DNA from: an uncultured Ruminococcus sp. | GTDB lineage: Bacteria; Bacillota; Clostridia; Oscillospirales; Ruminococcaceae | NCBI GenBank assembly: GCA_946413815.1 | Contig: CAMKMD010000009.1 | Location: forward strand, 1 to 64,000 | Direction: 5' to 3' | Length of the DNA: 64,000 nucleotides | Shown: piece by piece, positions 8,701 through 34,987 of the stretch | Layout of the letters: every line of letters begins with the position of its first letter | Position numbering within the stretch: the stretch's first letter is position 1 | Program-made: the position numbers and the translations under genes | The notes under the pieces: generated by a model | The model's input: the letters and a program-made list of their open reading frames with translations, nothing else | Database searches by the model: none | What the model was told of the DNA's origin: nothing

Positions 8701-8800
8701 AATTCGCACATTCGTAAGTACCTTTCTTCGTAAGCGGCAAAAAGACAGTATACCCACATTCCGGACAAACCAGTTCGTTCATCAGTTTAGTAGTTCCCAT
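5747..8800 (-). CDS. NACHT-type STAND NTPase with N-terminal zinc ribbon, TM segment and C-terminal pentapeptide repeats
   Basis: CPECGY...CANCH zinc ribbon; hydrophobic segment VSLIAVVGLFVAVVPGML; Walker A GSAGIGKSS; Walker B LFILDGLDEL; C-terminal A(D/N)L-type pentapeptides (ADLRNVDLTASEIERVSFKESDLRDAKLKGAV...). Confidence 0.8.
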   Translation of the reverse strand: MGTTKLMNELVCPECGYTVFLPLTKKGTYECANCHENIEFKGGEKISLSLSDSFTIKTLAKAGIDVAEYAAKSETIKKGVIVLSAIAGVSSVSLIAVVGLFVAVVPGMLKDIAENKLFSDKSVQKQFESLYEKRLREALNKGKNRDKGLKYFHFRLYFDRCREKSDVLYVALSNAQKNIDFLDKDSIVYIYKELGYTQNPTDEELANIIKVAGEIQSKYKEDILKDPKLRESFEELERLKEEKEILDYLKKNAVWIEDKIVETNQKIDKVKSAIDNLPIKADNTAYIDAYLEPLFFEEDNRRLTLGRIYVDPSVEDSVKKASEVINEWYKNDDEHQTLLVLGSAGIGKSSLCSKIMADAVGKDIVNDADKLFDIPLDKVHIKALRGCVSILEGFKYGSIRELIEKIFAPSDMQIKYDNDLFILDGLDELAVLCPEFDMEKLFSKLKIHQPKHYKLLITSRETTHYGCVRKESHLAIEKLKWNEDDMNSWCDKYCNLKGLNAFYWCDRFRDFYGTLHDEDERKKVFCVPVILYIAAHANVDFSMNSSIVKIYNEAFRSLLYREHTSLFGDDDAFVEDGENLKRKVYWQYTKELAHQMAISGSLILSDTDDSSYSCIDAAQKMTCRLLGMDQSKSGEEIDFNIDNTEYLSVFQFARSDESGLSIEFVHKTVYEYFAAVKLYEDYFKDMTTECSYEDIWQRIVQAFRYTYIELDIMRYLAEMIINSKTVDKEKFYECVFDGIKRFEIYHQFALDKGISEYRAHTDEYMFKRICFSNLIKLLTLMDYRNEPYKVLNGYDYNCDNKSKNGFDACFRELLDMSYETYYDFSNWCFEGIDIRGMKLYSCCLANANMSKAELSGALIDNEAIMPENDEKGMGSNNVNMESAILKGATIKYSRFDEAKMKMADMKGASLIGVSFVGADLRNVDLTASEIERVSFKESDLRDAKLKGAVIYCSSFENADLRGADLRGIDFAGLNGNHYFRGAKYNTDKTINGSKTLFPKWFDPKKNEMILDNTQYTD

Positions 8801-15919: not shown

Positions 15920-16546
15920 TCATTTCTCGGAGGATGCAGTTTCGGGCTGTATGCTGTTTTCTTTCAGATACTCCTCCATTATCCCGATTTTTTCCTCAAG
16001 GGATTCCTTGTCGTTTATCATTTCTTCTGTAAGTCCATATTTGTCAAGGCCTTCATAGTTTCCTGATGTCAGCTTCTGTGCCATATCCATGATCTCGTCG
16101 TGGTGTTTTCCGTCCATAAGATTCAAAGTGATTTGCATGATATACTTATCTGCTAAGAATACTCCCAAAAGATTATCGCTGAATATATCTGGATTGTTCC
16201 CAGGGGAATATTGCTTATTGGGATCTATCCAATAATAATTACCATCCGATTTCAACCCGCAAATATAGAAATTCTCAACTGAATTGCAGAAATGGTAACA
16301 GCGAAAGTATTCTGTGTCACAAACTGGAGAAAGATCTGATTTTGATTCAAAACAATCCATGGACAACTCGAAATTGTGTTCCGAACAACCTATAAAAGCA
16401 TCATCGTTTAGATAATCAGAATACGCATAAAATACATCTCCGTATTTTGTTTTGATCGTATAATGGCGGCCAGAGCAGCTGCAGAATGCCGTACTGATTA
16501 TTGCAAGAACGATCATTGAACTAAGAATTCTTTTTCTGTTTTTCAT
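15920..16546 (-). CDS. Membrane/lipid-anchored family protein with conserved 'YEGLDKYGLTEEMINDKESLEEKIGIMEEYLKEN' tail (array 1, copy D)
   Basis: N-terminal signal ending in CSCSG; Y.IKTKYGDVF motif; conserved tail. Confidence 0.8.
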   Translation of the reverse strand: MKNRKRILSSMIVLAIISTAFCSCSGRHYTIKTKYGDVFYAYSDYLNDDAFIGCSEHNFELSMDCFESKSDLSPVCDTEYFRCYHFCNSVENFYICGLKSDGNYYWIDPNKQYSPGNNPDIFSDNLLGVFLADKYIMQITLNLMDGKHHDEIMDMAQKLTSGNYEGLDKYGLTEEMINDKESLEEKIGIMEEYLKENSIQPETASSEK

Positions 16547-17135
16547 ACCATTTCTCCATTATCCCGATCTTTTCCTCAAGGGATTCCTTGTCGTTTATCA
16601 TTTCTTCTGTAAGGCCATATTTGTCAAGGCCTTCAAAGTCATGTTTCACAAGCTTTTGCGCTACGGCAATCATTTCGTCGTGATATAATTCATCAAGATA
16701 TGGAAGGATGATTTCCATATAGTGATAATCGCATAAGAACGCCGAAACGAACCATTCTTTGTTAGTGTTTATTCTGCCTTTGATATCCTCGGGATACTCA
16801 TCAAAGATATCTATAAAAATATCATACTTTTTTATTTTGCATATGTAAAACTTATTGTTTGATTGATCTATCTGATAACACCTGAAGTATGGCGAATCAC
16901 ATATAGGAATTATGCTTCTTTTCCCTGAATAATCTGATAAAGCCACAAAATAACCTGAATTATTGTCTTTAAGAGTAATATCATCTGTCCATAGCGCCTC
17001 TAAAACTGTAAAGGAGTCTCCGTATTCTGTATGAATATGGTGAATTATTCCGAAGAATGACCAGACAAGTAACCCCAATACAATTAGGATTACTGTAATT
17101 ACCACTATTCCGATTCTCATAACTGATTTCTTCAT
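16521..17135 (-). CDS. Conserved-tail TM-anchored family protein (array 1, copy C)
   Basis: Paralog; overlaps copy D by 26 bp. Confidence 0.8.
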   Translation of the reverse strand: MKKSVMRIGIVVITVILIVLGLLVWSFFGIIHHIHTEYGDSFTVLEALWTDDITLKDNNSGYFVALSDYSGKRSIIPICDSPYFRCYQIDQSNNKFYICKIKKYDIFIDIFDEYPEDIKGRINTNKEWFVSAFLCDYHYMEIILPYLDELYHDEMIAVAQKLVKHDFEGLDKYGLTEEMINDKESLEEKIGIMEKWYEKQKKNS

Positions 17136-17169
17136 TGATTCTGTTCTCCATTAAATCTGTGGAATCCCT

Positions 17170-17796
17170 TCATTTCTCGGAGGATGCAGTTTCGGGCTGT
17201 ATGCTGTTCTCTTTCAGATACTCCTCCATTATCCCGATTTTTTCCTCAAGGGATTCCTTATTGTTTATCATTTCTTCTGTAAGGCCGTATTTGTCAAGGC
17301 CTTCAAAGTCATGTTTCACAAGCTTTTTAGCTATATCTGTCATTTCGTCATGATATACTCGGTCTAAATATGGGAGAGTGATCCCCATCAGAATGGAATC
17401 GCAAAGCAATTCAGACTTAACCATCTCTCCGCTTTTACCTTTAATTTCATATTCTGTGTATTCTTTATCTGATGCACTTATAACTACATATTTGTCATAC
17501 CTTTTTAGCTTCAAGAGGTACGAATTTTCTTTATTATTCTGAATCTTATAGCACCTTAAACAATCTGAATCCTCTATTGATTGGATATCATTCTTCCCGT
17601 TGTAAGCAAGAAGCGGCATAATAGAATCAGAATTATCATCCCGGAGACAGTAGTCCTCGGTTATTCCACCACCACAGATTGTAAATGAATCTCCAAAATC
17701 AGTTTTGACATGATACGTCCTTTCATGAAACAACCAAAACAGAAACAAACAAGGCACAGCTATTACTAATGCTAACAACAGAAATACTTTTTTCAT
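17170..17796 (-). CDS. Conserved-tail TM-anchored family protein (array 1, copy B)
   Basis: Start MKKVFLLLAL; conserved tail; near-identical N-terminus to 27325-27948. Confidence 0.8.
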   Translation of the reverse strand: MKKVFLLLALVIAVPCLFLFWLFHERTYHVKTDFGDSFTICGGGITEDYCLRDDNSDSIMPLLAYNGKNDIQSIEDSDCLRCYKIQNNKENSYLLKLKRYDKYVVISASDKEYTEYEIKGKSGEMVKSELLCDSILMGITLPYLDRVYHDEMTDIAKKLVKHDFEGLDKYGLTEEMINNKESLEEKIGIMEEYLKENSIQPETASSEK

Positions 17797-17828
17797 AAAT
17801 CCTCCATGCTGAGTTTTCTGAACGGTGA

Positions 17829-18452
17829 TCACTGGCCACTGTGTCCGGAGTTATCAGTCCCGTTCTCATTCAGATACTTCTCCATTATCCCGATTTTTTC
17901 CTCAAGGGATTCCTTGTCGTTTATCATTTCTTCTGTAAGACCGTATTTGTCGAGGCCTTCATATTTTCCTGATGTCAGCTTCTGAGCCATATCCATGATC
18001 TCGTCATGATATACGCCGTCCATGTAGTTCATTGTGACCTGCATTATGTATTTATCGGCTAAAAAGACTTTCAGAAAATCCTCACTATATTCTTCTTTAA
18101 ACCATTTGCGTGTAGTCTCTGCATATGGTTCTATCGGGATATAGTCGCCGTCAGGCTTGAGACCGCAGATATAAAACCATCCTTTTCCATATGCAAATTT
18201 GTAGCAACGAAATAATTCAGTATCACAAACCGGAGAGAGATCTGATTCAAAACCTGAAAATGATATGTCAAAATTGTGTTTTAAACAACTTATAGATGCA
18301 TCGTCACTTAATAGGTCATAATGTTCAATAAAAACATCACCATATACTGTTTTTATTCTGGTTTTATGATCTGAGAAAACGTAAATTATCATTCCGATAA
18401 ATGAGAGTATGATTACTGTTATTACTGTTATTACTATTCTTTTCATTTTCAT
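17829..18452 (-). CDS. Conserved-tail TM-anchored family protein (array 1, copy A)
   Basis: MKMKRIVITVITVIILSFIGMIIYVF TM anchor; conserved tail. Confidence 0.8.
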   Translation of the reverse strand: MKMKRIVITVITVIILSFIGMIIYVFSDHKTRIKTVYGDVFIEHYDLLSDDASISCLKHNFDISFSGFESDLSPVCDTELFRCYKFAYGKGWFYICGLKPDGDYIPIEPYAETTRKWFKEEYSEDFLKVFLADKYIMQVTMNYMDGVYHDEIMDMAQKLTSGKYEGLDKYGLTEEMINDKESLEEKIGIMEKYLNENGTDNSGHSGQ

Positions 18453-18490
18453 TTCCCCTTCTATAATCTGATTATGATACGGGAATCTAT

Positions 18491-19225
18491 TTATATTTCA
18501 AACCCGTATTTCCTGAGCACCGCCTTGTTATTCTCTGCCCTTCGCTCAGCTTCTCTGAATACCTGCTCCTGTAATTCCTTGCTCGCCCATACACGGTCTC
18601 TGCTGTCGATCAGTTCGTGGAGAGCAGAATGACAACCTTCGAGCGATGATTGATAATACGGCGTTGAAGTGTTGCCTTCATAGTAATTCAGAAGATAATC
18701 GTCAACTAAGTTGAGCTTGTGGTCGAATGATTCATGATCATCTGTTAGTATCAGAAGAACAGAATCCCGATGCATCCTGTCTGCTGGATAAAGAGAACCC
18801 ATCCAGTAGATTGTCAGATAATCCAAACATTTCTTCAAGTCATTTGCTTTTAAAAGAACAGGAAGTGCAAGTTGACTGGTACGGTTATAAGATTCTTTGA
18901 TAACATTTGTAACGCTAGATGCATCATATTCAAAATGAGAAATTCTCTTGATGTTTGTATCAAGAACTGGGTATTTACAAAGACTTGTACTCGAAAGCTG
19001 CAGCTGATGTGTGGTCAGATCTTTACTGTATATAGTCTGAACACCGGATATAATGTCAAAGGCTTTCATTCCGCGATTGATCGCACTGCATGGCTTGTAT
19101 GAGATATAAAGAAGGATCTCCTTGTTGATGAGCTTACCGAAAAAATCAGTCCCCTTCATTCTCCGGAAACCGTATGGTTCAAGACCTTCCTTGAATACCT
19201 TCATGAATTCTGATTTGAATGCCAT
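18491..19225 (-). CDS. DUF4304-like protein
   Basis: MAFKSEFMKVFKEGLEPYGFRRMKGTDFFGKLINKEILLYISYK; paralog of 28631-29362. Confidence 0.65.
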   Translation of the reverse strand: MAFKSEFMKVFKEGLEPYGFRRMKGTDFFGKLINKEILLYISYKPCSAINRGMKAFDIISGVQTIYSKDLTTHQLQLSSTSLCKYPVLDTNIKRISHFEYDASSVTNVIKESYNRTSQLALPVLLKANDLKKCLDYLTIYWMGSLYPADRMHRDSVLLILTDDHESFDHKLNLVDDYLLNYYEGNTSTPYYQSSLEGCHSALHELIDSRDRVWASKELQEQVFREAERRAENNKAVLRKYGFEI

Positions 19226-19302
19226 TGTAAATTCCCCCGTCGGTTTATATTAGTATAATTATAGCACATTGTTTACCAATTTTCAAGGAATAAGGCGGTG
19301 CA

Positions 19303-19434
19303 GATGATATTTGATTTCTTAATTTGTACTCTCAGATATCTGAACTCTGACTTCTCACTGAACTTAGGCGCAATTAACCTGCGTGTGGATTTCATAGTGA
19401 GCATAAGCAGACTGAAATGGCCGGCAAGCAGATT
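19303..19434 (-). pseudogene. 3' remnant of a homolog of the 29462-29947 gene
   Basis: Matches 29455-29572 (CTTAGGCGCAATTAAC...GGCCGGCAAGCAGATT); homology stops at 19434/29572. Confidence 0.6.
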
Positions 19435-19597
19435 GGATCACTTCTCCTGTCTTACAGATACATCCAGTATCTGTATATTATCGAAAAAGAAAGTGCTCCG
19501 CTTGCATCCGGCTTGCTGTTGTGATATAATAAACTAAAACAGCCCCTGCCGGAATACGGAGGATAAGCAATATGCGGCACAGACCGGAGGATATAAT

Positions 19598-21274
19598 ATG
19601 GAGCAGAATATGACAGAACAGGAATTGGAACTGCTGAAGCAGATTCGGGAGGATCTGGATGTTGTGGAACATGAATACGGCTGCAAGATAGATCGTGAGG
19701 AGATGCTGACTGAGGTTCTCGAACGGAATCTGAATAAAGTCAGGCCGGAGGAGGCCGCACTGTTCTTCTCCGGCGTACTCCCTTCCGGCTGGCGGCAGAC
19801 CTATCTCGGGAAGAAAAAGCTTTCCGATTATCTGAATAAGCTCAGAGACAAAATTTCCGTTCAGTGGTGCAAAGATTATCTGGAGCCGGAACTGAGCGCA
19901 CTGCTCAGGAGCGAATCGATCAAAGCCCTGTTCAAGGATAGTGAGATACCTGCGAATGATTATTCTTTGAGCAGACTGAAACATATCCTCGGAGGTAAGT
20001 GCAAGAAAAAGGAGCTGTTTGCATCCCGTGAAAAAATAGACCGGTATATGCAGAAATTAAAAGTTGAAGCAAATATCAGTCCTCATTTTCGGTTTATCCG
20101 CCCGGAACGGTTTGCAGAGATCGTAGATATCTATCTGGAGGCAATGGAGGAGCGTGGAGACTGCACACAGGAGGAGTTTGGCGTTCTCCTCGGCAAAAAG
20201 CAGGGAACTGTCAGCAAGCTGCGGAAAGCACAGAGAAACATCACAGCGGAAAAAGAAAATCAGGTACTGCGTTGCCTTTATTTACTGCACATCAAGGAGG
20301 ATCTGCGGAAGGATCTTGGTATGAAGAATATCCAGTCCTTATGTACTGGTAACTTCTATATGAATTTGAAGTGGATCAAGAATAACCGGCTGTTTGCTGT
20401 TTTTTATCTGGCAGTGCTGCTGGGTTTTTCGGTACGTAATAATGGGTATCTAATTTCGGGTATTCCCGCAACCATAGCAGATCTCAATGATCTTCTGAAA
20501 AATCATCCCTTCGGAAAACATTTTGATCCCGATCCTGAAGATACATTCTGTGCAGCTCAGCCGAAGGAGACTGATCTGAATACGCTTTCATTGCGAGAAC
20601 TGATTCGTCTGACGGATCAAAAACCTCTATTTTCTAAAACGGAGGCGCGCTTGGATAAATTAATGCAGATGAAAGATGAGTATTTTCAGCTGCTTCACCA
20701 GATGCCGGAAATTTTTTTCACAGACCTGCCGCCATCCGCCTTCGTTATGAACTATCTCTGTGAGTATCTTGAAGAAATGCGTCACCTCCGGGGACACGGA
20801 CGATATTGTCTTATGTCAAAGATGGAAACGGTTGCGACCGGATGGAATATACTTTCCCTTCACAGCCATTTATCGCAAACGCTTTTTGTTTATCTCCAGA
20901 AATTCTTTCAGCTTATGGAGTATCTTTCCGATAACAAATCATATAACGAGCATCCGGGGGTTGTCAGTTGCGATCGGATAGTATCCAGTCACAGAAAACA
21001 GGAAAAGCAAAAACCGCTGACTATAACTCAGAAGCAGGAATACCGTAAAGAGTTTGAAAACTATATTGATAAACAACATCCATATACATATCTGCTAAAA
21101 CTGCTTCAGCTCAAATTCAGCATGACTATGCAGGAATGGTATTTCTGGCTGAAAATGGAACTGCTGTGGTACAGTGAGAAAAATGAAGACTGCTGGCGTT
21201 TATTCATGGAGAAATGTATTCAGGAAGCCCGTGAAGCCGACCGCAGATCATCCAAAAATGATCCTGATACCTGA
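19598..21274 (+). CDS. Hypothetical protein with possible internal HTH
   Basis: 558-aa ORF; central 'CTQEEFGVLLGKKQGTVSKLRKAQRNITAEKENQV' looks like an XRE-like HTH. Confidence 0.7.
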   Translation: MEQNMTEQELELLKQIREDLDVVEHEYGCKIDREEMLTEVLERNLNKVRPEEAALFFSGVLPSGWRQTYLGKKKLSDYLNKLRDKISVQWCKDYLEPELSALLRSESIKALFKDSEIPANDYSLSRLKHILGGKCKKKELFASREKIDRYMQKLKVEANISPHFRFIRPERFAEIVDIYLEAMEERGDCTQEEFGVLLGKKQGTVSKLRKAQRNITAEKENQVLRCLYLLHIKEDLRKDLGMKNIQSLCTGNFYMNLKWIKNNRLFAVFYLAVLLGFSVRNNGYLISGIPATIADLNDLLKNHPFGKHFDPDPEDTFCAAQPKETDLNTLSLRELIRLTDQKPLFSKTEARLDKLMQMKDEYFQLLHQMPEIFFTDLPPSAFVMNYLCEYLEEMRHLRGHGRYCLMSKMETVATGWNILSLHSHLSQTLFVYLQKFFQLMEYLSDNKSYNEHPGVVSCDRIVSSHRKQEKQKPLTITQKQEYRKEFENYIDKQHPYTYLLKLLQLKFSMTMQEWYFWLKMELLWYSEKNEDCWRLFMEKCIQEAREADRRSSKNDPDT

Positions 21275-21339
21275 CAATGCATCCTGTTTTCATAAATACA
21301 AAACGCCCTTTGCATTTTGTTTCTGCAAAGGGCGGTTTT

Positions 21340-22980
21340 TCAGCTGGCTGCACTGATATTCTTCTGTGCTTCAAAACGTATTTTGCCGGCGGGTTCGTTG
21401 AAAGTAAGTATTACCTGATCCAGCCCTTCAATGGTCACGCAGATCGACTTATCTGACATATCCTCATCGAAAAACCGTACGGAAACAGTATTCAGTACGA
21501 GCTCCCGGATCTTGTTGAGCGGTTTCCGCACGCCGAGATTGCCGAAAGAGAGAGCGATCAGCTCCTGCTCAGCCTGTTCTGTCAGGCGGATCTTCACTTT
21601 GAGTTCGTGCTCGATCTCACTGCATTTGCTTCGTATAAGGGCGAGCATACTCTCATCCGACATTCTGCCGAAATTGACGATCTGCTGAATACGGCCTGCC
21701 AGCTCCGGCTGCATTCCGGCTTCAATGATATCATCGATCGTTATCGGGCTGTAAAACATATCGGTGTCATCTTCCGGCCGGATCGCCGGAGCTGCAAACC
21801 CAAGTGTATGAGTATTGCAGGCCTTCTTCTGACGGCTGATGCGCAGATCCTGGAAAGCTCCCATAAATACAAACATCGTCTTGCCGGTATCAAATTTTCT
21901 GTCAACATCGTTGATTTCAACGTTGAAGCTGAATCCTTCGATCAGTGTCAGAAGCCCGCTCTGCATATGAAAGTTTACATTTTCACCTTGCGCATTGCTG
22001 CTCGGATACAGCTTTTTATCCGCTTCGTCCAGAAAGCATACGGCATACCCGGTGGATTTCAGGTTCTCGTTCAGGATCATATTCACGATCTCTGAAGGAT
22101 CCGTCCCCTTGAAGCCTTCCTCTGTGATGCGGCTGAGATCGACCTGCACGACCGGCACAGGGATATGATGCGCCTTGAAATAATCCCGTATCGTCCGGTA
22201 CAGCTCGGTCTTTCCGCAGCCGCTCGGCGCAGTCAGAAACCAGTTGAATGCCTGGAAGCATTCACCCCTGCTTATCGACCGGAGATACTGCCATATCAGG
22301 TAAACTGCTTTCCGCAGTTCAGCACCCTGCCCCTGGATCCTGCGCTCACAGTATGCAAGCAGATCTGCAGGATCAACCGTTTCAACTGCATGGCAGCATT
22401 CTCTGGCAAAATCTGACATATCGTAATGCGCTTTCATCTCTGTTATGGAAATGCACCGAAGTTCTCTGCCGGTCATTTTCTCCTCTTCATACCATACTGA
22501 GAACAACGTGTCAGTTGACGTAAAACCGCAGATGTTCCAGCTGCTGTCGATAATGCCGTATTTCGCCTCAGAATTCAGAGCAGAATACACCTTTTCATTC
22601 ATCACGATACTCTCAAGCTTTGGATACGGCATTTGCAGCTTTTCCGGAAGAAGCAGAAGGTACTGATGATGTGCCCGGTACTCCAGTATCATCTCCTGCC
22701 CGAACACCAGATTGCTCCGGCTTTCCTGAACGGTCAGTTGTCCGCACGTTTCTTTAAGTACATAGCTTCCTTTCGTCAGATTGAGCTGAGGAAGCCCGTG
22801 CAGGATAAGCTTTGCTTCTCCTTCAGAGAAAACATAATCCGGTTTGCACAGATCTGACGTGCACATCCTGCAGCGGAGGGTTTGCTCATAGCGCCTTCTC
22901 CTATAGAGGTAGACACCGTCGCCCTCAGAGAAACTTCGGCCGCAGCACGCACAATTTGAAATATCGATGACAGTATTCAT
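21340..22980 (-). CDS. Zinc-finger AAA+ ATPase, ClpX-like
   Basis: N-terminal CACCGRSF...CRMC zinc finger; Walker A APSGCGKTE; Walker B AVCFLDEADK; sensor-like region; start MNTVIDIS. Confidence 0.75.
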   Translation of the reverse strand: MNTVIDISNCACCGRSFSEGDGVYLYRRRRYEQTLRCRMCTSDLCKPDYVFSEGEAKLILHGLPQLNLTKGSYVLKETCGQLTVQESRSNLVFGQEMILEYRAHHQYLLLLPEKLQMPYPKLESIVMNEKVYSALNSEAKYGIIDSSWNICGFTSTDTLFSVWYEEEKMTGRELRCISITEMKAHYDMSDFARECCHAVETVDPADLLAYCERRIQGQGAELRKAVYLIWQYLRSISRGECFQAFNWFLTAPSGCGKTELYRTIRDYFKAHHIPVPVVQVDLSRITEEGFKGTDPSEIVNMILNENLKSTGYAVCFLDEADKKLYPSSNAQGENVNFHMQSGLLTLIEGFSFNVEINDVDRKFDTGKTMFVFMGAFQDLRISRQKKACNTHTLGFAAPAIRPEDDTDMFYSPITIDDIIEAGMQPELAGRIQQIVNFGRMSDESMLALIRSKCSEIEHELKVKIRLTEQAEQELIALSFGNLGVRKPLNKIRELVLNTVSVRFFDEDMSDKSICVTIEGLDQVILTFNEPAGKIRFEAQKNISAAS

Positions 22981-23112
22981 CGCGCACCATCCTTTCCTGT
23001 TATTGTTTGATCTGACTGATCCCATAATATCACACCCGGACAGGCAGGTACAGGAGTAAAGCGTCCGGTCAGACATATGGCATCATTGACCTTTCTGTAT
23101 CATCCTGATACT

Positions 23113-23724
23113 TCAGGATCTTTTGCGGTGCAGAACCTGATAGATGCCAAGAATCAGGTGAACAAGGTATGGGACCGGTCCGAGCATACCGGACGGGATT
23201 GTTACGGCAAACCAGTAAAACAGGGAGATCGCACCCCATATCGCAACTCCGACCGGCGGGAAGAGCAGCGTAGGAGCCGTACTGATCAGCGCCTTGAAAT
23301 AAGGCTCCTGTAAGCGCTTATAGAATCCGCCGAGTCCGAGTAACAGGAAGATGATCGGTGCAGGGATGAGTCCTATCCAGAATGTGACATAGAGAGCCTT
23401 CTGCTTCTCTGAGAGCCACAGCCCGCCCCTTTCAAGGTCAAGGAGCTTGTCTGTCCGGACGACATTGTCTTCGTCCTCGTCCATCAGGGTCGGCAGCTTG
23501 CAGAAGGTCTTGTCCGCTTCTTCGTTATGGAACGCGCTGATATAGGACTTGACAAGCCCGTCTTCGGTAAGCAGCTCCGGCGTATCCTTTGCGAGCAGTG
23601 CATAAAGCCCGAAAGAACACAGAATCAGAATGATCGTCTGGAGAAAGAACACCAGCAGATGAACATCCCGGAAGGATGCCGGATTTTTGATGCCGTCCCG
23701 AAACTCTCTTAAAAACTCTTTCAT
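23113..23724 (-). CDS. Multi-TM hypothetical membrane protein
   Basis: Start MKEFLREFRDGIKN; three or more hydrophobic segments. Confidence 0.6.
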   Translation of the reverse strand: MKEFLREFRDGIKNPASFRDVHLLVFFLQTIILILCSFGLYALLAKDTPELLTEDGLVKSYISAFHNEEADKTFCKLPTLMDEDEDNVVRTDKLLDLERGGLWLSEKQKALYVTFWIGLIPAPIIFLLLGLGGFYKRLQEPYFKALISTAPTLLFPPVGVAIWGAISLFYWFAVTIPSGMLGPVPYLVHLILGIYQVLHRKRS

Positions 23725-23947
23725 AACAGAAACCTCCATATTTATGATTTGTGATTCACATGGCGTTGTCATGTGATCTGAACATATCATAGCATACCGG
23801 GACGGACAAGTATAGAGGAAAAACGGAATACGTGGATTATTCCAAAAAAAACTTTTTCCGGATAGTGAAAGGCTGACCGCTGTAAAAGGCGTAGCATCAA
23901 AATCAGCTCTCTCCGGTTTGTGATTCCAGAGTCTTGGAACCGATGGC

Positions 23948-24382
23948 ATGGAAGCAGGTAGTGTAGCAACAGTAATCAGCATCAGAAAAGGAACCTTTGG
24001 AGGTTATTCAAGATTATTCTATAATTTCTGCATTGCAGCCGGAGTTCCTTCAACAAATGTTCTTGTTGGCGTAAACTCCTGTGACCATGCATGGAACTAT
24101 GTCAAGATCAGGAATAAATGGTACAATGTAGACGTGACGGGTGATTACGATGTATGTGATAAGGACACTTTTTACAGAAAGTATCAGTCACAGTCAGATC
24201 CGTATGTCGAAGACTTCCTTGGCCCCAGATATCCCCATCGGCCGTCCGGCTGAACAGTATGTCTGGATGATAATCTTGGTACTGACGATAAAACGAACTA
24301 TACAAATCCGCGTGTTGTTCTGTTTGACACGCTTCTCGCAGAGAATGGATACGAATATGGTATCACAGGTGTAAGGGCCTGA
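23948..24382 (+). pseudogene. Transglutaminase-like protein fragment (frameshifted)
   Basis: GGYSRLFYNFCIAAGVPSTNVLVGVNSCDHAWNYVKIRNKWYNVDVTGDYDV; continues in another frame as VCLDDNLGTDDKTNYTNPRVVLFDTLLAENGYEYGITGVRA*. Confidence 0.65.
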
Positions 24383-24599
24383 TAGTTAAGGTCTGAAAAA
24401 TCAAACAGACGAAATAATTATACTAATATATCAGGAGAACAGCTTCCCCGGTGCAAAAACCGGGAGTCAGTATACTGACCGGAAGCTGTTCTCTCTTTTT
24501 TTGTGAATTCTCATGGAATGCCGAAAATAAACTCCTCCCCGAATAGTCTGCCGGGTTTCTCCTCTGTGCAGTTGGATCTGAATAGTTTTTCCCCTTCCC

Positions 24600-25184
24600 T
24601 CACCCCCTGACATACACCGTAACCTCCCCCTCAGACCTGCAATTCTGAAACTCAGAACCCTCGCAGCAGAGGTTGCTGTTCACGAAGGTGCAGTTTATGA
24701 ATTCGCAGTTTATCCAGTCTGTATGCTGAGCGTATGAATTCATGAATACGCAGTTCTCAAACTTGCAGTTCATAACGATATTGCGGTGTTCGTGATACTC
24801 GTTCGTCTCAATCTCACCGAACGGATAAATCATACTACCCCTGATGCAGAAACGGAAGAACCTGACGTTCCGGAAGGTGCCGTTCATCATGCAGCAGTGT
24901 TCAGCTATCATGCGCTCAAATTTCATATCAATGATATTGAAATTGATAAGGTCGAACTTTCTGACCTTTGTCATTCTGAGGTTGCAGCCTGCATATTCCA
25001 TAATGTCGCGCCTGTAGAATGACTTGTACATCCGCCTGCCTACCCACTTGTCATCCCAGCCTATGCGGTGCTTCTTCGCGTCCGGATAGGAGTCGTCATC
25101 AAGCATATATGTATGGTTTTTCTGACGGTCGATATAACCGTCAATAAGCTTCTGGTTCATGGTCTCAAAATCCCTGTTATTCAT
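24600..25184 (-). CDS. Pentapeptide-repeat-like protein
   Basis: Start MNNRDFETMNQ; 'NCKFENCVFMNSYAQHTDWINCEFINCTFVNSNL' repeats. Confidence 0.7.
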   Translation of the reverse strand: MNNRDFETMNQKLIDGYIDRQKNHTYMLDDDSYPDAKKHRIGWDDKWVGRRMYKSFYRRDIMEYAGCNLRMTKVRKFDLINFNIIDMKFERMIAEHCCMMNGTFRNVRFFRFCIRGSMIYPFGEIETNEYHEHRNIVMNCKFENCVFMNSYAQHTDWINCEFINCTFVNSNLCCEGSEFQNCRSEGEVTVYVRG

Positions 25185-25203
25185 AAACACCCTTCCTTTC
25201 AGA

Positions 25204-25704
25204 TCAATCGTAGTCTTCCGTGCAGTCTGTGTACTTGCAGTTGCTGTAGTAGAAGCAGTCATCGAGACACGGAGTCCCGCTCCATCTGCATCTGGTAAAT
25301 TCACACTCTCTGAATCCGTAGCCCTCCCCTGAGAATGAGATGATATTGCAGTCCTCGAACCTGCAGGCTACGAACCTTCCGCTCTGACAGTCGATACGGT
25401 CGAATGTGCAGTTTCTGAATGTGACGTTATAGAAGCTGAAATGACCCAGCTGGAAACCGGTGAAAGTCCTGTCTGCGAACTCCGCATACTCCATTGTCAG
25501 GCCTTCAAGCAGCTGCTTTTTAGGCTTGACCGTCAGAGGCGAATGGACAAGTTCTTCTTCCTCGTCATCCGCAATATCTTCAAATAAAAAGTCATCATCG
25601 TCAAACGGCCAGTTGCTGTCCTCGTTCTCTTCCAGAATGATGGTATCTTCGTCATCGTCATAAAACTCGTCATACTCTTCAAACTCGTAATTGTTTTCTT
25701 CCAT
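25204..25704 (-). CDS. Acidic N-terminus, pentapeptide-repeat-like protein
   Basis: Start MEENNYEFEEYDEFYDDDED; 'NVTFRNCTFDRIDCQSGRFVACRFEDCN'. Confidence 0.7.
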   Translation of the reverse strand: MEENNYEFEEYDEFYDDDEDTIILEENEDSNWPFDDDDFLFEDIADDEEEELVHSPLTVKPKKQLLEGLTMEYAEFADRTFTGFQLGHFSFYNVTFRNCTFDRIDCQSGRFVACRFEDCNIISFSGEGYGFRECEFTRCRWSGTPCLDDCFYYSNCKYTDCTEDYD

Positions 25705-25987
25705 ATAAATCCTCCTTACAGTAGGCAAAAGCTGAACGTATGGGAATTGTCTGAGCCGGCGGCTCGTCAGCGCCTCACGGCGCACTATGCAGCGTCTCCC
25801 GACGCCGGTTTGTCAAGCTGCTGACAAAACAAAAAGGATATTCAGATGGATACAGTATGCCCGTAGGCATAAAATATCTATCTGAATATCCTTTTGTAAT
25901 GCTATCATATCATGTTTGTCACAAGTTGTCAAGCGTTTCGAGAAATATTTTTGAATTAACAAATGTCAATGATAGCGTTATCGAAAC

Positions 25988-26007
25988 GGCGGGGATATCC
26001 CCGCCGC
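25988..26007. terminator. Perfect GC-rich palindrome CGGCGGGGATATCCCCGCCG
   Basis: 20-bp perfect inverted repeat next to the pseudogene 3' end. Confidence 0.5.
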
Positions 26008-26019
26008 ATTCATTCAAAC

Positions 26020-26546
26020 TTATCGGTACAGATCATTCAGTGTCAGCAGTCTGACCTCTCCGCGCTTTTCGCACTCCTGAAGTTCCCTGGTGAAACCGCC
26101 GAGTGAGAAAATATAATAGTGATACTTGCTGCCTTTGCTGAATACGGAGGCATAGTGCCTGATCAGCTCAAGCTCGTCAATGCCTGTCTTCTCGTTGCGG
26201 TACTTGCAGGAGCCGATGATGTATCGATAACAAATATGATTCTTTGTTCCTTTGACAGATTTGTTATCTCCTGGATGGCAGCATCATAATTATGGTATAT
26301 AGGAGCATCACCGCCGACAAGCTCCGGCTTTTTATACTCATAAATGGCTCTGGATAGGCATTCTAGGTTTTCCTGAGATGTTGCGTTCAGAGCAGAGAAG
26401 AATATAACAGGCTTTCCGGTGCAGAATTCTTTTATCAGCGCAGTTTTACCGACATGCTTTCTTCCATAGATACCGACACACTCAAACTGATTGTCATTAT
26501 ATTTCTTATTCAGCTTACCAAGTTCATTCTCACGGCAATAGAACAT
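26020..26546 (-). pseudogene. Internally deleted ATPase (P-loop) / DUF234-like C-terminus
   Basis: N-terminal P-loop GIYGRKHVGKTALIKEF, then frame change and C-terminal 'IIGSCKYRNEKTGIDELELIRHYASVFSKGSKYHYYIFSLGGFTRELQECEKRGEVRLLTLNDLYR*'. Confidence 0.7.
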
Positions 26547-26650
26547 AATGCCCCCTCCGATTTAGTGAATCATAAGTTATAAACTTACGAGTATGTTATA
26601 TAGCATTTTCTGAGATATGTCAAGTCCATTGAGATAAACGGAACTGTCTG

Positions 26651-27274
26651 CTACTGGTCGCTGCTTTCAGAGTGTTCTCCCCCGTTCTCTTTCAGATACT
26701 TCTCCATTATACCGATCTTCTCATTAAGAGATTCCTTGTCGTTTATCATTTCTTCTGTAAGGCCGTATTTGTCGAGGCCTTCATAGTTTCCTGATGTGAG
26801 CTTCTGTGCCATATCCATGATCTCGTCATGATAAACCTCGTCAAGCCAATTCAGGCAGATCTTCATGATCTGTGAATCACTCAAAAGATTCTCTAATAAA
26901 CCTCGTCCATTATCCTCTGAGAAAAAACTGTATTCAGGTGCACAGTTTACAACTACAATTGTATATTCTTCGGTGCTCTTCAGTTTACAAAAGTACTTGT
27001 CTTCCATACCATTTACATATTCATAGCATCTGAAACGTTCTGTATCACATATACTTTTCAGATCTTCTTTTCCTCTGTACAGAAGGATATCCGCTCCGAA
27101 ATCTGATGATCTATCCGATATATAGTATGCATCTCCGAATAAACCATGCTGTATTTCAAATGTATCACCATAGTCTGTTTTGATGATGTATTTACTCTTA
27201 TTGATAATTGAAACACTAACAAAGATTATCATAAAGCAAATCATTATCGCTGCAACTATTAGTTTTTTAGTCAT
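26651..27274 (-). CDS. Conserved-tail TM-anchored family protein (array 2, copy C')
   Basis: N-terminal TM; YIIKTDYGDTF; conserved tail. Confidence 0.8.
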   Translation of the reverse strand: MTKKLIVAAIMICFMIIFVSVSIINKSKYIIKTDYGDTFEIQHGLFGDAYYISDRSSDFGADILLYRGKEDLKSICDTERFRCYEYVNGMEDKYFCKLKSTEEYTIVVVNCAPEYSFFSEDNGRGLLENLLSDSQIMKICLNWLDEVYHDEIMDMAQKLTSGNYEGLDKYGLTEEMINDKESLNEKIGIMEKYLKENGGEHSESSDQ

Positions 27275-27324
27275 CGCACTTCTCCTTTATCAGCGAATGT
27301 GGTTCAGTTATCTGTCAGGTGCGG

Positions 27325-27948
27325 TCAATGCACGAATGCGGAAGTACTTGGCTGTTCCTTATACGCTTTCAGATACTCCTCCATTATCCCGATTTTTTCA
27401 TCAAGGGATTCCTTGTCGTTTATCATTTCTTCTGTAAGGCCATATTTGTCAAGACCTTCAAAGTCATGTTTCACAAGCTTTTTAGCTATATCTGTCATTT
27501 CGTCATGGTATAATTCGTCAAGATATGGCAGAATGATTTCCATGTAATGATGGTCACATAGGAAATCAGATATATACCATTCCTTAAATTCTTTGAGGTT
27601 ATAGATGATCTCATCTTTGTAATTCATGTTAACACTAAAAAACCGATCTTGGTTCTTTATTTTGCATATGAAAAGATTATCCTCCGATTCATTGATCCTG
27701 TAACATCTGAAGTATCCCGAATCACATACGTTCTTTATACATGATTTTCCATAGAAGCTTGATAGTGACTGTGAGTAACCGGAGTTATCATCATTTAATA
27801 CAGTTCCGCTGATCAATGGATCCTCAATTACTGTGAATGAATCTCCAAAATCAGTTTTAACATGATACGTCCTTTCATGAAACAACCAAAACAGAAACAA
27901 ACAAGGCAAAGCTATTACTAATGCTAACAACAGAAATGCTTTTTTCAT
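27325..27948 (-). CDS. Conserved-tail TM-anchored family protein (array 2, copy B')
   Basis: MKKAFLLLALVIALPCLFLFWLFHERTYHVKTDFGDSFTV; conserved tail. Confidence 0.8.
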   Translation of the reverse strand: MKKAFLLLALVIALPCLFLFWLFHERTYHVKTDFGDSFTVIEDPLISGTVLNDDNSGYSQSLSSFYGKSCIKNVCDSGYFRCYRINESEDNLFICKIKNQDRFFSVNMNYKDEIIYNLKEFKEWYISDFLCDHHYMEIILPYLDELYHDEMTDIAKKLVKHDFEGLDKYGLTEEMINDKESLDEKIGIMEEYLKAYKEQPSTSAFVH

Positions 27949-27980
27949 AAATCCTCCATGCTGAGTTTTCTGAACGGTGG

Positions 27981-28593
27981 TCACTGACCGCTGCTTCCGG
28001 AGTGATCTCCTCCGTTCTCTTTCAGATACTTCTCCATTATCCCGATCTTTTCCTCAAGGGATTCCTTGTCGTTTATCATTTCTTCTGTAAGCCCGTATTT
28101 GTCGAGGCCTTCATAGTTTCCTGATGTCAGCTTCTGAGCCATATCCATGATCTCGTCATGATATACGCCGTCAATGTAGTTCATTGTGACCTGCATTATG
28201 TATTTATCGGCTAAAAAGACTTTAAGGAAATCAGCGCTGTATTCTTCTTTGAAGAATTTAGGTGGATTCTTTTCGTAAGGGTCTATCCAGAAATAATCTC
28301 CATCGGGTTTGAGGCCGCAGATATAGAAGTATTCCTTAGTATTAGTAAACCTGTAGCAGCGGAATAATTCAGTATCACAAATCGGAATAAGATCCTTCTT
28401 TGAATCAATATTTGAAATAGACAGATCCAAATTATGGGCTGTACAGCTTATAAACGCACATTCACCCCAAGAATCGGAGTACATCCAAAACTGATCCCCG
28501 TATTCTGTTTTTACTCTGTATTCATGATCTGAGAAAGCGTAAATTATCATTCCGATCAACGAGAGTATGATTACTGTTATTACTGTTTTTCAT
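27981..28593 (-). pseudogene. Conserved-tail family protein (array 2, copy A'), N-terminal anchor frameshifted relative to copy A
   Basis: 11-bp shortening of the GTAATAACA repeat tract versus copy A; the ORF survives only from MIGMIIYAFSDH (28559). Confidence 0.65.
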
Positions 28594-28630
28594 TTTTATT
28601 TTCCCTTCTGATTCTGAGACGGGAATCTCT

Positions 28631-29362
28631 TTATATTTCAAAGCCGTACTTCCGCAGCTGCGCCTTATTAATTTCAGCACGGCGATTGGCTTCACTGAAT
28701 ACCTTATCCTGTAATTCCTTGCTCGCCCATACGCGGTCACGGCTGTCTATCAGTTCATGGAGAACAGGTGGGAACTCCTCGAGCCATGTCTGATAAACAG
28801 GATTAGACTCATTTCCATTATAAAACTTTAGTCTTTCTTCTTTTGCTTTATTCAAGCGGTATTCAAAGGAATCATGATTATCAGCCACGATCAGCAGGAT
28901 CGAATCACGATACATTCTGTCAAGATGATTCAGCCAGCCAAATTTGAACGTAAACAAGTATTCGAGACATGAAGGAAGATCTATAACTTTCTCAAATATC
29001 GGCATTATAACTTTCATCATACTCTTAAATGCTTTATCTATCGCATCAGATTGCGTCTTGCTTGTATACTCAAAATAAACTCTGATATTATCAACACAGG
29101 AAATATTATGATTGATCAGACCACCTGATGAAAAGATAAGCTGATGCTCTGTGAGATCATGACTGTAGATAGTCTGTACGCCGGCGATAACATCAAAGGC
29201 CTTTACTCCCCGGTCGGGTGGGCTGTACTGCTTGTAAGAAACATAGAGAAGTATTTCATTATTGATAAGCTTGCCGAAGAAGTCCGTCCCCTTCATTCTC
29301 CGGAAACCGTATGGTTCAAGACCTTCCTTGAATACCTTTATGAATTCTGATTTGAATGCCAT
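28631..29362 (-). CDS. DUF4304-like protein
   Basis: Paralog of 18491-19225 with nearly identical N- and C-termini. Confidence 0.65.
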   Translation of the reverse strand: MAFKSEFIKVFKEGLEPYGFRRMKGTDFFGKLINNEILLYVSYKQYSPPDRGVKAFDVIAGVQTIYSHDLTEHQLIFSSGGLINHNISCVDNIRVYFEYTSKTQSDAIDKAFKSMMKVIMPIFEKVIDLPSCLEYLFTFKFGWLNHLDRMYRDSILLIVADNHDSFEYRLNKAKEERLKFYNGNESNPVYQTWLEEFPPVLHELIDSRDRVWASKELQDKVFSEANRRAEINKAQLRKYGFEI

Positions 29363-29395
29363 TGTTATTTACTCCCGTCGGTTTATATTAGTATA

Positions 29396-29424
29396 ATTAT
29401 AGCACATTGTTTACCATATTTCAA
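29396..29424 (-). promoter_or_regulatory. Sigma70-like promoter TTGAAA-17-TATAAT for array 2 (duplicated upstream of array 1)
   Basis: Minus-strand TTGAAA (29419-29424), 17-nt spacer, TATAAT (29396-29401). Confidence 0.6.
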
Positions 29425-29461
29425 GGAATAAGACGGTGTAGGTGATGTTCTATTTTTTCAT

Positions 29462-29947
29462 TTATGCTCTTATATATCTGAACCCTAACTCCTCCCTGAC
29501 CTTAGGCGCAATTAACTTGCGCGTGCTCTTCATGGTAATCATCAGCAATCCGTAATGTCCGGCAAGCAGATTAAACTCCGCCACTGTAAGCGTCAGCTCT
29601 CTGATACCTCCCCGATTCAGTCTCCTGATCTGCTTATTGATCACAGCAACGCCGTCCTCGTCATTATTCCCCGCAAAATATCCGAGAACGGGCTTATCCA
29701 CAGTCAAAGCCTCATACTTAACCCCTCCATGAAGTACCCTGATCCAGTCATTATTCAAGCCCATAGCCGCGATCACTATGTAACCTGTGGGAGCTTTTCC
29801 TGAAAGATGCCTGAACGTTATAGTCCTCGCCTTTCTGTCTACAATAAGCTCACCTATGCACTTCTTCTTTCTGAGAAAACTGAACCTGTTTTTATCGGAA
29901 GCGATGATCTCGAACTTCCTTCTGATAATGTCTGTACTCTTTTCCAT
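29462..29947 (-). CDS. Hypothetical protein of mobilizable element
   Basis: Downstream of the relaxase in the same orientation; 3' part duplicated at 19303-19434. Confidence 0.6.
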   Translation of the reverse strand: MEKSTDIIRRKFEIIASDKNRFSFLRKKKCIGELIVDRKARTITFRHLSGKAPTGYIVIAAMGLNNDWIRVLHGGVKYEALTVDKPVLGYFAGNNDEDGVAVINKQIRRLNRGGIRELTLTVAEFNLLAGHYGLLMITMKSTRKLIAPKVREELGFRYIRA

Positions 29948-29974: not shown

Positions 29975-30505
29975 TTATTCCTCGTCCTGAGAAGTAAATA
30001 TTTCAGGACACTCCCATTCCTTCCCCTGTTCATATGTAACCGAAAGTGCAGTTTCTTTTCCCGTAACATCAGCTACACGCTGAGCTATGCCGTAGTTAGT
30101 CCGATTGTCGGAATACAGCATAGAACCGTCATTGTAGTTTGTGGTGCTGACGTAGTTATGTACATGAAACAAAGAACTATCACGCTTCTCGTTATGCACA
30201 ACACTCATCACAAGATGCTCCTCGGTGAAAGGCCTGATTATCTCCTCATTCAACCGCATAGCTTCATCGGCGGTAGGAGCAGTATCCTCCGTAAAGGAAA
30301 TCATAAACTGCAGGAACGGATTCTTGTCACCGTTATTCCAGAACTCAGCATTCTTTTCAAACTGCATAGCTGCGACCTCGGGAGAATTCTGATTTACACC
30401 GTACCCCTTCGTCAGTACTCGCCTGTCGTCAAGGCAGTAATTCATGGCATTCCTGATATAGGCTGTGCCACCGTCCGACCTTGTAATTACTTTACATACT
30501 TCCAT
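29975..30505 (-). CDS. Short relaxase/mobilization nuclease domain protein
   Basis: HNEKRDSSLFHVHNYVSTTNYNDG (histidine-containing relaxase motif); follows a MobC/RHH-like gene. Confidence 0.7.
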   Translation of the reverse strand: MEVCKVITRSDGGTAYIRNAMNYCLDDRRVLTKGYGVNQNSPEVAAMQFEKNAEFWNNGDKNPFLQFMISFTEDTAPTADEAMRLNEEIIRPFTEEHLVMSVVHNEKRDSSLFHVHNYVSTTNYNDGSMLYSDNRTNYGIAQRVADVTGKETALSVTYEQGKEWECPEIFTSQDEE

Positions 30506-32831: not shown

Positions 32832-33815
32832 ATGTGTAGTTTATTTGGATGGACTGATTATGCAGGCATTGTCCCGCACAGAGTACTCAGAAAGCTTACT
32901 CAGGCACTTGCGAACGCCGCAGAGGAACGTGGCACAGATGCGGCAGGCATCAGTTATGTACGTGACGGACAGGTGGTAATCTACAAGAGACCTAAGCCTG
33001 CACATAAGCTTCACTTCAATCCGCCTGAGGGTACAACGGCAGTTATGGGGCACACCCGCATGGCTACTCAGGGAGACAAGAAGCTGAACTTCAATAATCA
33101 TCCATTCGCCGGCTCTGCCAGCGGTACTTCATTCGCATTTGCTCACAATGGGGTACTCTGGAATGACAAGGAACTCCGCCGTGATAAGGTCATACCCGCA
33201 ACCTACATCGACACTGACAGTTATGCTGCTTGTCAGCTTATCGAAACTCAGGGTAAAATTGACTTTGATAGTCTCAGATACATGGCTGAGACTGTAGAAG
33301 GAAACTTCACCTTTACGGTACTTGATCAGGAGAATAACCTGTACATTATAAAAGGAAGCAATCCGATGTATCTGCTCCACTTCAAGTCACTGGGGCTGTT
33401 TATCTATGCTTCGACAGAGAGTATCATGAAGGCGGCACTCCGCCGCCTTGGATTCCACAAGTTTCCGTCAGAGCGGATTGAAACCATTGAGGGTGATATC
33501 CTCAGGATTGACTGTCACGGTCAGATCACTCGCTCCGGGTTCGAGCCTAAACTGTATCGCATGAAGTACTCTCCGTGGTTAGATGATGACATCTATACTT
33601 ATTATAATATACACGAAGAAATGCTGCTCGCTTACTGCGGCTGTTACGGAGTGGACAGTTCGGATGTGGAGTTATTGTTGGAGTATGGCTACAGCTGCGA
33701 TGAGATAGAGGAGATGCTTGCCGATCATGACCTGCTCCGGGAAGCTATACAGGATGTGAAGTACATCTGTGGTGAGGAGAAATATGAAGGTTGTTACGGA
33801 GGTATCTGCGGATGA
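32832..33815 (+). CDS. Class II glutamine amidotransferase (N-terminal Cys)
   Basis: MCSLFGWTDYAG...AEERGTDAAGISYVRDG...MGHTRMATQGDKKLNFNNHPF. Confidence 0.85.
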   Translation: MCSLFGWTDYAGIVPHRVLRKLTQALANAAEERGTDAAGISYVRDGQVVIYKRPKPAHKLHFNPPEGTTAVMGHTRMATQGDKKLNFNNHPFAGSASGTSFAFAHNGVLWNDKELRRDKVIPATYIDTDSYAACQLIETQGKIDFDSLRYMAETVEGNFTFTVLDQENNLYIIKGSNPMYLLHFKSLGLFIYASTESIMKAALRRLGFHKFPSERIETIEGDILRIDCHGQITRSGFEPKLYRMKYSPWLDDDIYTYYNIHEEMLLAYCGCYGVDSSDVELLLEYGYSCDEIEEMLADHDLLREAIQDVKYICGEEKYEGCYGGICG

Positions 33816-34987
33816 CCAAAAAAGCTAACGGAGAAGGAAGCATCTTTAAGGATAAACAAGGGCGGTGGCGCGCCGTTATTTCCATCCCTACCGTTGACGG
33901 TAAGCAGAAAAGGAAGTATCTGTACGGCCGTACACGTAAAGAAGCTTCCGATAAAATGACGGCGCTGCTTAATCAGCTGCACACCAACACATATATCGAG
34001 CCATGTCAGATCAATCTCTATGACTGGCTTTGCACCTGGCTTGAACTGTACTGCAAAAACGAGGTAAGGTCTTCAACATACGTGAACTACGATACATATG
34101 TTCAGCGTCATATAAGGGACACTATCGGCGGATATAAGCTGTGTGACCTCACCAACGGCATCATGCAGGCTTTCTACAACGAAAAAGCAAAGAACGGCAA
34201 GCTGGATGGTTCCGGCGGTCTTAATCCTAAGACCATAAAGAATATGCACGATATGATACACAGAGCCCTTGACAAGGCCGTTCACCTTGATATGATTCCG
34301 AAGAACCCCTCAGACTTTGTCACTCTTCCGAAATTCAGGAGATCTGAAATGCGGTTTCTTACCCTTGAGGAGCAGAAGCAGCTGCAGGAGGCTGTTAAAG
34401 GAGACAGGCTTGAAATGCCTGTTCTCCTCGCCCTCTATACCGGGATGCGGCAAGGCGAGATCTTCGGCCTGAAATGGGCTTATGTCCATCTTGATTCTGC
34501 CGACCGTTCATGGCTGCGAGTAGTTCAGGCAGTCAACAGGTTAAGCGACCGGACGGGTGAAGGAAGTAAGAAGACTTATCTTGCCCTGTGCGATCCTAAG
34601 ACTTCTCACTCTGTCAGAGCCATCCCTCTTCTCCCCTATATTGCCGGGAAACTGAGAGTTTACAAAGCGGAACAGGAACAGTATTTCAGAGACAAAGGAC
34701 TGCATAGGAGTGAGATGGTCTTTACTTCAAAAGCGGGGAACTTAGTTGATCCGGCAGACTTCCGTCGTGATTTCAAGCTGCTGCTCAAGCGCAGCGGTCT
34801 GCGTGAGATTAACGTTCACGCCCTCCGGCACACCTTTGCTACAAGAGCACTTGAGAGCGGCATGAATGTCAAGACGCTCTCAAAGATCCTGGGACACAGC
34901 AGCGTTGCATTCACTCTTGACACATACGCCCACGTTACTGAGGACCTGAAATTTGAAGAAATGGCCGGTATGAATGGCTTTCTGTGA
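33812..34987 (+). CDS. int: Tyrosine recombinase/integrase
   Basis: TGMRQGEIFGLKW, LRHTFATRALESGM, LGHSSVAFTLDTYAH; ATGA overlap with the upstream GATase. Confidence 0.9.
   Translation: MTKKANGEGSIFKDKQGRWRAVISIPTVDGKQKRKYLYGRTRKEASDKMTALLNQLHTNTYIEPCQINLYDWLCTWLELYCKNEVRSSTYVNYDTYVQRHIRDTIGGYKLCDLTNGIMQAFYNEKAKNGKLDGSGGLNPKTIKNMHDMIHRALDKAVHLDMIPKNPSDFVTLPKFRRSEMRFLTLEEQKQLQEAVKGDRLEMPVLLALYTGMRQGEIFGLKWAYVHLDSADRSWLRVVQAVNRLSDRTGEGSKKTYLALCDPKTSHSVRAIPLLPYIAGKLRVYKAEQEQYFRDKGLHRSEMVFTSKAGNLVDPADFRRDFKLLLKRSGLREINVHALRHTFATRALESGMNVKTLSKILGHSSVAFTLDTYAHVTEDLKFEEMAGMNGFL

What the first reader, a model, noticed from the sequence alone, without database searches (positions are those of the whole stretch)
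15920..29572. Segmentally duplicated cassette: DUF4304-like gene plus an array of seven membrane-anchored paralogs sharing an almost invariant C-terminal tail
Seen directly: two copies, about 10 kb apart and in the same orientation, of [DUF4304-like gene, then 3-4 small TM/lipid-anchored genes]. All seven small proteins share an N-terminal anchor and a 'Y.(I/V)KT.(Y/F)GD.F' motif. They also share a tail 'YHDE(I/M).D.A.KL....(Y/F)EGLDKYGLTEEMIN(D/N)KESL(E/D)EKIGIMEKYLKEN' that is nearly identical even at DNA level, while the middle of each protein is highly divergent. Duplication also covers the promoter and the 3' end of the 29462-29947 gene, with a clear breakpoint (GGCAAGCAGATT) at 19434/29572. 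Conserved tail plus variable body suggests ongoing array expansion and gene conversion, as in poly-immunity loci; DUF4304 has been placed among putative immunity-type families in polymorphic-toxin analyses. That this is an immunity or surface-recognition array is inference.
Basis: partly seen in the sequence, partly recalled or inferred. Interest (0 to 1): 0.75.

Follow-up and report, generated by a model that had tools for sequence, protein, structure and literature searches.

The report
Orphan immunity array against TelC-type toxins
A rumen Ruminococcus carries seven related membrane-anchored genes that are most likely a stockpile of antidotes against rival bacteria's cell-wall-attacking toxins, each with its own middle part between ends kept alike by recombination; relatives of these genes elsewhere sit directly behind such a toxin gene.

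Summary
Two same-strand blocks about 10.14 kb apart each carry a leader gene plus 3-4 paralogs, and the left breakpoint is exact at 19434/29572. The paralogs have saturated synonymous divergence in their bodies but not in their tails, so recombination has homogenised the ends while bodies differ. Body trees show lineages shared across species.

No protein family matches them. In two genomes a paralog directly follows, and overlaps, the C-terminal domain (CTD) of a TSP3-repeat exported protein: this genome's contig C49 and R. flavefaciens XPD3002. A profile containing that CTD matches the TelC lipid II phosphatase crystal (5UKH, E 1e-7). In XPD3002 the CTD lies on a displaced cassette that repeats the carrier's pre-toxin segment. 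The second immunity copy there is preceded by remnants of a deleted toxin.

Best reading: an orphan immunity array protecting at the outer membrane face against TelC-like toxins. It works like the TipC/EsaG arrays but is not detectably related to TipC. This genome's only detected TelC domain is broken.

The 'DUF4304-like' label failed the Pfam test; that gene's role is open. Immunity function is inferred from linkage, not shown. A new immunity family in a known kind of array.

The parts
15920..16546 (-). immunity paralog w1 (lipoprotein/TM-type N-terminus), last gene of array 1; body lineage II
16521..17135 (-). immunity paralog w2; body lineage I; overlaps the next gene by 26 nt
17170..17832 (-). 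immunity paralog w3; N-terminus synonymously identical to w6 (pS 0.00) but body different (pS 0.80)
17829..18452 (-). immunity paralog w4; confident AlphaFold model: TM helix 2-26, eight strands 29-107, helical C-terminal part 112-197; body lineage II
18491..19225 (-). leader gene of array 1 (called DUF4304-like; not a Pfam DUF4304 member), 244 aa, conserved ends and variable middle
19226..19434 (-). duplicated upstream region, including a copy of the 3' end of the 29462-29947 gene; breakpoint GGCAAGCAGATT at 19423-19434
26651..27274 (-). immunity paralog w5; body a lineage of its own
27325..27984 (-). immunity paralog w6; body lineage I, closer to the XPD3002 cognate immunity and w2 than to its segmental duplicate w3
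27981..28559 (-). immunity paralog w7; N-terminus frameshifted versus w4 (about 10-nt deletion near 28590), only a TTG start in frame
28631..29362 (-). leader gene of array 2, 58% identical to 18491-19225
29363..29572 (-). duplicated upstream region of array 2; 29462-29572 is the 3' end of the 29462-29947 gene; breakpoint 29561-29572
29975..30505 (-). MobA/VirD2-type relaxase next to array 2 (mobile-element context, not part of the immunity function)
   Evidence: PF03432 E 1.5e-12

Best explanation
The seven genes are an orphan immunity repertoire. Each encodes an outward-facing, membrane-anchored antidote. Its variable body (an eight-stranded domain plus helices) would bind and block one variant of a TelC-like lipid II phosphatase toxin made by other Ruminococcus strains. 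The TM or lipid anchor and the conserved helical tail form a common scaffold. In the cognate configuration the immunity gene overlaps the 3' end of a C-terminal toxin domain carried by a Sec-exported TSP3-repeat protein (with a C-type lectin domain in the C49 example). New toxin-immunity cassettes are added by recombination at the conserved pre-toxin segment. The toxin part is then deleted, leaving the immunity gene. Tandem immunity genes recombine through their near-identical junctions (tail of one gene + ribosome site + anchor of the next), which homogenises ends and shuffles bodies. Shown by sequence: linkage, cassette displacement and decay in XPD3002, TelC homology of the toxin domain, mosaicism. 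Inferred: that the proteins neutralise the toxins, that the toxin acts on lipid II, that the body is the binding face, and that the array in the window is expressed.
For: Linkage: paralogs directly behind the toxin CTD on C49 and in XPD3002 (L027 6836-7933 then 7917-8525). The two CTDs are homologous (35% identity, E 2e-28). Cassette: the XPD3002 CTD gene begins with the same pre-toxin stretch (MVEHLSRFNSADYNFLTRDNAPRLYLPIISDPTM) as the upstream 1193-aa carrier. The carrier's own DUF4474 CTD and its DUF5104 lipoprotein form another pair. Decay: between the two XPD3002 immunity copies lies a pre-toxin remnant joined to the last codons of the CTD; C49 and C59 carry similar pre-toxin fragments between orphan genes. 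Toxin type: the CTD matches the C-terminal domain of Rv2525c/PG-binding proteins; phmmer with one of these hits TelC 5UKH at E 0.0034; a 9-sequence profile hits 5UKH at E 1e-7 with the next hit at 0.15, and H134, W166, G168, D169, D215, D219 and D221 invariant. PMC12419801 independently reports TelC domains fused to PG-binding and Rv2525c domains. Two further TSP3-type carriers with a TelC-like CTD (in other genera of the family) are each followed by a small membrane protein of another family. Recombination: body pS 0.55-0.97 versus tail 0.08-0.58 within the genome, and tail 0.67-0.87 between species; alternating identity blocks; w3/w6 and w6/C49 fragment runs p 0.001 and 0.0005; two trans-species body lineages. 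Precedent: tipC tandem paralogues with conserved ends and a variable centre that recombine (PMC9484751).
Against: No toxin or toxin remnant was found in the window itself, and this genome's only detected TelC domain is interrupted, as is its adjacent immunity gene. Linkage rests on two loci; homologs in G136, G028 and L026 have no toxin neighbour within the DNA held. The family is rare (3 of 299 family genomes, including this one). No fold match to TipC or anything else and no sequence match to any solved structure. The toxin-domain model failed (pLDDT 36). TelC homology is transitive for the Ruminococcus CTD: P0001 alone does not hit 5UKH.
Confidence: 0.78

Rival explanations
1. A surface-recognition or adhesion lipoprotein family, like staphylococcal tandem lipoproteins, whose variable bodies diversify under immune or phage pressure and which only happens to lie near large secreted proteins.
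For: Membrane-anchored outward-facing proteins with variable bodies and tandem expansion; several copies are orphan, without a toxin.
Against: Overlapping-gene linkage to a TelC-like CTD in two separate genomic settings, and a decayed toxin remnant in front of the second XPD3002 copy, are not expected for adhesins.
Confidence: 0.1
2. A dead or decaying genomic island: paralogs are remnants of past toxin loci with no present function, kept by chance on mobile DNA.
For: w7 is frameshifted, the C49 toxin and its immunity gene both carry stops, relaxase fragment and truncated ATPase nearby.
Against: Six of seven window genes keep full-length open frames with short or overlapping junctions; the tails show pN far below pS (0.02-0.17 versus 0.08-0.58), i.e. 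purifying selection.
Confidence: 0.1
3. Immunity array, but against other toxins than TelC-type ones: orphan paralogs have been repurposed for different CTDs, and the TelC link is true only for the two linked copies.
For: Bodies are about 33-38% identical across the set, and w5 forms its own lineage; C59 orphan genes include several unrelated membrane proteins.
Against: Both main body lineages include a member adjacent to a TelC-like CTD (XPDa in lineage I, C49 in lineage II).
Confidence: 0.15

Closest known systems
[quoted passage not shown] PMC5555719, PMC9484751)
   Same: Anchored outward-facing immunity protein; toxin of the TelC family; tandem paralogues with conserved 5' and 3' blocks and a variable centre that recombine.
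   Different: No sequence hit of the family profiles to any solved structure and no fold hit listed; the toxin is carried by a signal-peptide TSP3-repeat protein, not an LXG/T7SS protein; array distant from any toxin.
EsaG and TsaI immunity strings of Staphylococcus aureus (PMC9484751)
   Same: Long strings of non-identical immunity paralogues for a polymorphic toxin; toxin fragments inside the cluster (TsaI); recombination through homology blocks (EsaG).
   Different: Different protein families; EsaG is a nuclease immunity protein, TsaI a polytopic membrane protein.
rAID orphan immunity arrays of gut Bacteroidales (PMC12247911)
   Same: Arrays of orphan immunity genes without toxins that diverge from cognate genes.
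   Different: T6SS effectors, Gram-negative hosts, recombinase-associated arrays; here one family, Bacillota, mobile-element genes near but no array-specific recombinase shown.
Lipocone (TelC) proteins fused to PG-binding and Rv2525c domains (PMC12419801)
   Same: Shares the TelC-like domain with the linked toxin CTD.
   Different: Those proteins lack the TSP3 carrier; the sections read describe TipC as the only reported TelC immunity protein and do not describe this pairing.

Membership tests
Polymorphic-toxin immunity proteins (class) | Gene directly downstream of a variable C-terminal toxin domain on a conserved carrier | tested here: met
   C49 and XPD3002 loci; not met at the window array itself, which is orphan
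Polymorphic-toxin immunity proteins (class) | Neutralises the cognate toxin | not testable with these tools
   needs co-expression and binding assays
TelC-type toxin (for the linked CTD) | Homology to TelC and its aspartate-rich motif | tested here: met
   Profile A8 vs 5UKH E 1e-7 with DxxADLD aligned; invariant H/W/D residues; P0001 alone gives no hit
TelC-type toxin (for the linked CTD) | Lipid II phosphatase activity, toxic only outside the cytoplasm | not testable with these tools
   biochemistry needed
TipC family (immunity) | Sequence or fold homology to TipC | tested here: not met
   No PDB sequence hit at E<=10 for profiles A1 and A3; TipC not among the 50 listed Foldseek matches, none significant
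DUF4304 (PF14137), leader genes | Pfam model match over cut-off | tested here: not met
   no match at E 1; own-genome search finds only a 12.4-bit match elsewhere
rAID-type orphan immunity array | Array of toxin-less immunity genes homologous to toxin-linked ones | tested here: met
rAID-type orphan immunity array | Dedicated recombinase associated with the array | tested here: inconclusive
   two phage-type integrases at 33791-34987 and 38473-39795, several kb away; link to the array not shown

The most novel reading that the evidence does not exclude
A second, TipC-unrelated immunity family for TelC-type lipid II phosphatases, kept in a Bacillota counterpart of rAID on mobile DNA. It evolves by exchanging ancient, trans-species body lineages between homogenised ends, in a toxin system exported by adhesin-like TSP3/lectin carriers rather than T7SS.
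Probability: 0.5. Interest if true: 0.68.

Novelty: new variant of a known kind. Interest (0 to 1): 0.58.

Why it matters
It links an unnamed protein family to a specific toxin class and so makes it testable. It extends TelC-type warfare from streptococcal T7SS to exported TSP3-repeat proteins of cellulolytic rumen Ruminococcus. It also gives a clear natural case of immunity repertoires built by cassette gain, toxin loss and body exchange, with bodies older than the species and ends younger.

Tried and rejected
DUF4304 membership: rejected. Toxin remnants in the window by tblastn with carrier and CTD proteins: none; the only carrier-side match, at 46193-45897, is to a neighbouring C49 ORF that is not the TSP3 carrier. 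Relatives of the immunity family in viral contigs and plasmids: none. CTD in phages: none. The CTD fold from a 3-sequence alignment was useless, so no fold search was run with it. Foldseek of the immunity model against PDB: no significant match. Hits at E 0.004-0.2 to holin_LLH, HEPN, EppA_BapA and others, all below the families' cut-offs, were treated as chance. Rfam: nothing in the window. PADLOC: nothing for the array proteins. No papers hold DUF4474, DUF5104 or DUF4304 in the library. A fragment-run test is significant for only two of 28 pairs after correction; the main recombination evidence is the synonymous-site contrast, not that test. The leader-gene relatives (13 of 100 genus genomes) are domains of larger proteins beginning mostly MG(N/S)FFTS without a toxin neighbour seen, so its function was left open.

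Full report
What is there. The window lies on contig C9 of a 4.2 Mb genome of a dockerin-bearing, Ruminococcus-like bacterium (relatives named Ruminococcus). On the minus strand, array 1 is leader 18491-19225, then 17829-18452, 17170-17832, 16521-17135 and 15920-16546. Array 2 is leader 28631-29362, then 27981-28559, 27325-27984 and 26651-27274. Junctions between successive genes are short or overlapping. The repeat blocks keep a spacing of 10137-10158 nt and end at an exact 12-nt word at 19434 and 29572, inside the 3' end of the 29462-29947 gene.

The mosaic is not only protein conservation. Aligning the two duplicated blocks gives stretches above 90-95% identity at the promoter, the leader's start and each tail-plus-next-anchor junction, alternating with 35-55% in the bodies. 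For w3/w6 the synonymous difference is 0.00 at the N-terminus, 0.80 in the body and 0.16 in the tail; for w4/w7 it is 0.00, 0.55 and 0.08. Tails of different genomes are synonymously saturated (0.67-0.87), so tail codons are not frozen by selection on DNA. Within this genome they have been homogenised or recently replaced together. Tail proteins are also conserved between species (75% mean identity versus 33-38% in the body), so purifying selection and recombination both act. The body tree groups w2, w3 and w6 with XPD3002 and G028, and w1, w4 and w7 with C49, L026 and G136. The bodies are therefore older than the species.

Where relatives sit. The family is rare: 3 of 299 family genomes including this one, plus two named Ruminococcus records. 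In R. flavefaciens XPD3002 (L027) two copies follow a 365-residue CTD gene. That gene starts with the same pre-toxin stretch as the upstream 1193-residue TSP3 carrier, whose own CTD is DUF4474 followed by a DUF5104 lipoprotein. It looks like a displaced toxin cassette. The stretch between its two immunity copies holds a decayed pre-toxin piece joined to the final codons of a CTD, as expected if a toxin was deleted and its immunity gene kept. On C49 of this genome the same kind of CTD, with an internal stop, precedes an eighth copy, also with a stop. C59 holds further orphan membrane-protein genes among carrier fragments.

What the toxin is. The CTD's second half matches the C-terminal domain of PG-binding/Rv2525c proteins on Lactiplantibacillus plasmids and viral contigs. 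One of these hits the TelC crystal 5UKH. A profile of nine such domains, the XPD3002 CTD first among them, hits 5UKH at E 1e-7, with the next PDB hit at 0.15. The literature independently assigns TelC domains to Rv2525c-fused proteins (PMC12419801) and shows TelC to be an extracytoplasmic lipid II phosphatase countered by TipC (PMC5555719). That 5UKH is the TelC crystal is my own knowledge; the PDB table names it only 'uncharacterized protein'. In two further genera of the family a similar exported carrier with a TelC-like CTD is followed by a different small membrane protein, so at least two immunity families appear to serve this toxin class.

How it most likely works. The anchor places the protein outside the membrane, where a TelC-like toxin would act. 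AlphaFold gives w4 a TM helix, an eight-stranded domain and a helical C-terminus at mean pLDDT 86, with no significant solved relative. I infer that the variable body meets the toxin and the tail is scaffold. The array then protects against toxins of other strains; this genome itself has no intact TelC CTD that could be found, in an assembly about 96% complete. Recombination at the junctions would expand, lose and shuffle members, as reported for tipC and esaG (PMC9484751). Neighbouring relaxases and integrases suggest mobile DNA but do not prove that the arrays move.

Limits. Neutralisation, toxicity and binding are not shown. The linkage rests on two loci. The TelC assignment of the Ruminococcus CTD is through a profile. 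The leader gene's role is unknown; it shows the same conserved-ends pattern and may be another immunity type, but nothing here tests that.

Noticed in passing
42847-45057 (-): 736-aa protein with an Imm26 domain (PF15428, E 3.2e-16): another immunity-type gene in the same window.
   Followed up: no
5747-8800 (-): 1017-aa protein with NACHT/STAND-type ATPase and pentapeptide repeats; no PADLOC match.
   Followed up: partly
29975-30505, 41671-42783, 33791-34987, 38473-39795: Two relaxase genes and two phage-type integrases around array 2 and beyond: mobile-element region.
   Followed up: partly
26163-26546 (-): Short ATPase_2 (AAA) gene at the downstream edge of array 2, looks truncated.
   Followed up: no
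L027 2603-6181 and 6198-6710: TSP3 carrier with a DUF4474 C-terminal domain followed by a DUF5104 lipoprotein: a candidate toxin-immunity pair for two DUFs; no paper in the library mentions either.
   Followed up: partly
L089 2998-5851, L090 6704-10694, L030 9038-9484, L010 53-301: A second small membrane-protein family behind TelC-like CTDs, also present as orphans on C59 and C49.
   Followed up: partly
L012 8835-13986 and L013 1002-6153: A block on contig C9 beyond the window is repeated with ORFs of the same length and ends about 12 kb further on.
   Followed up: no
L059 3528-6704, L060 216-3242 and others: Leader-gene relatives occur as one or two domains in 430-1058-aa proteins mostly beginning MG(N/S)FFTS in the genus; no Pfam family over its cut-off among the four scanned.
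   Followed up: partly
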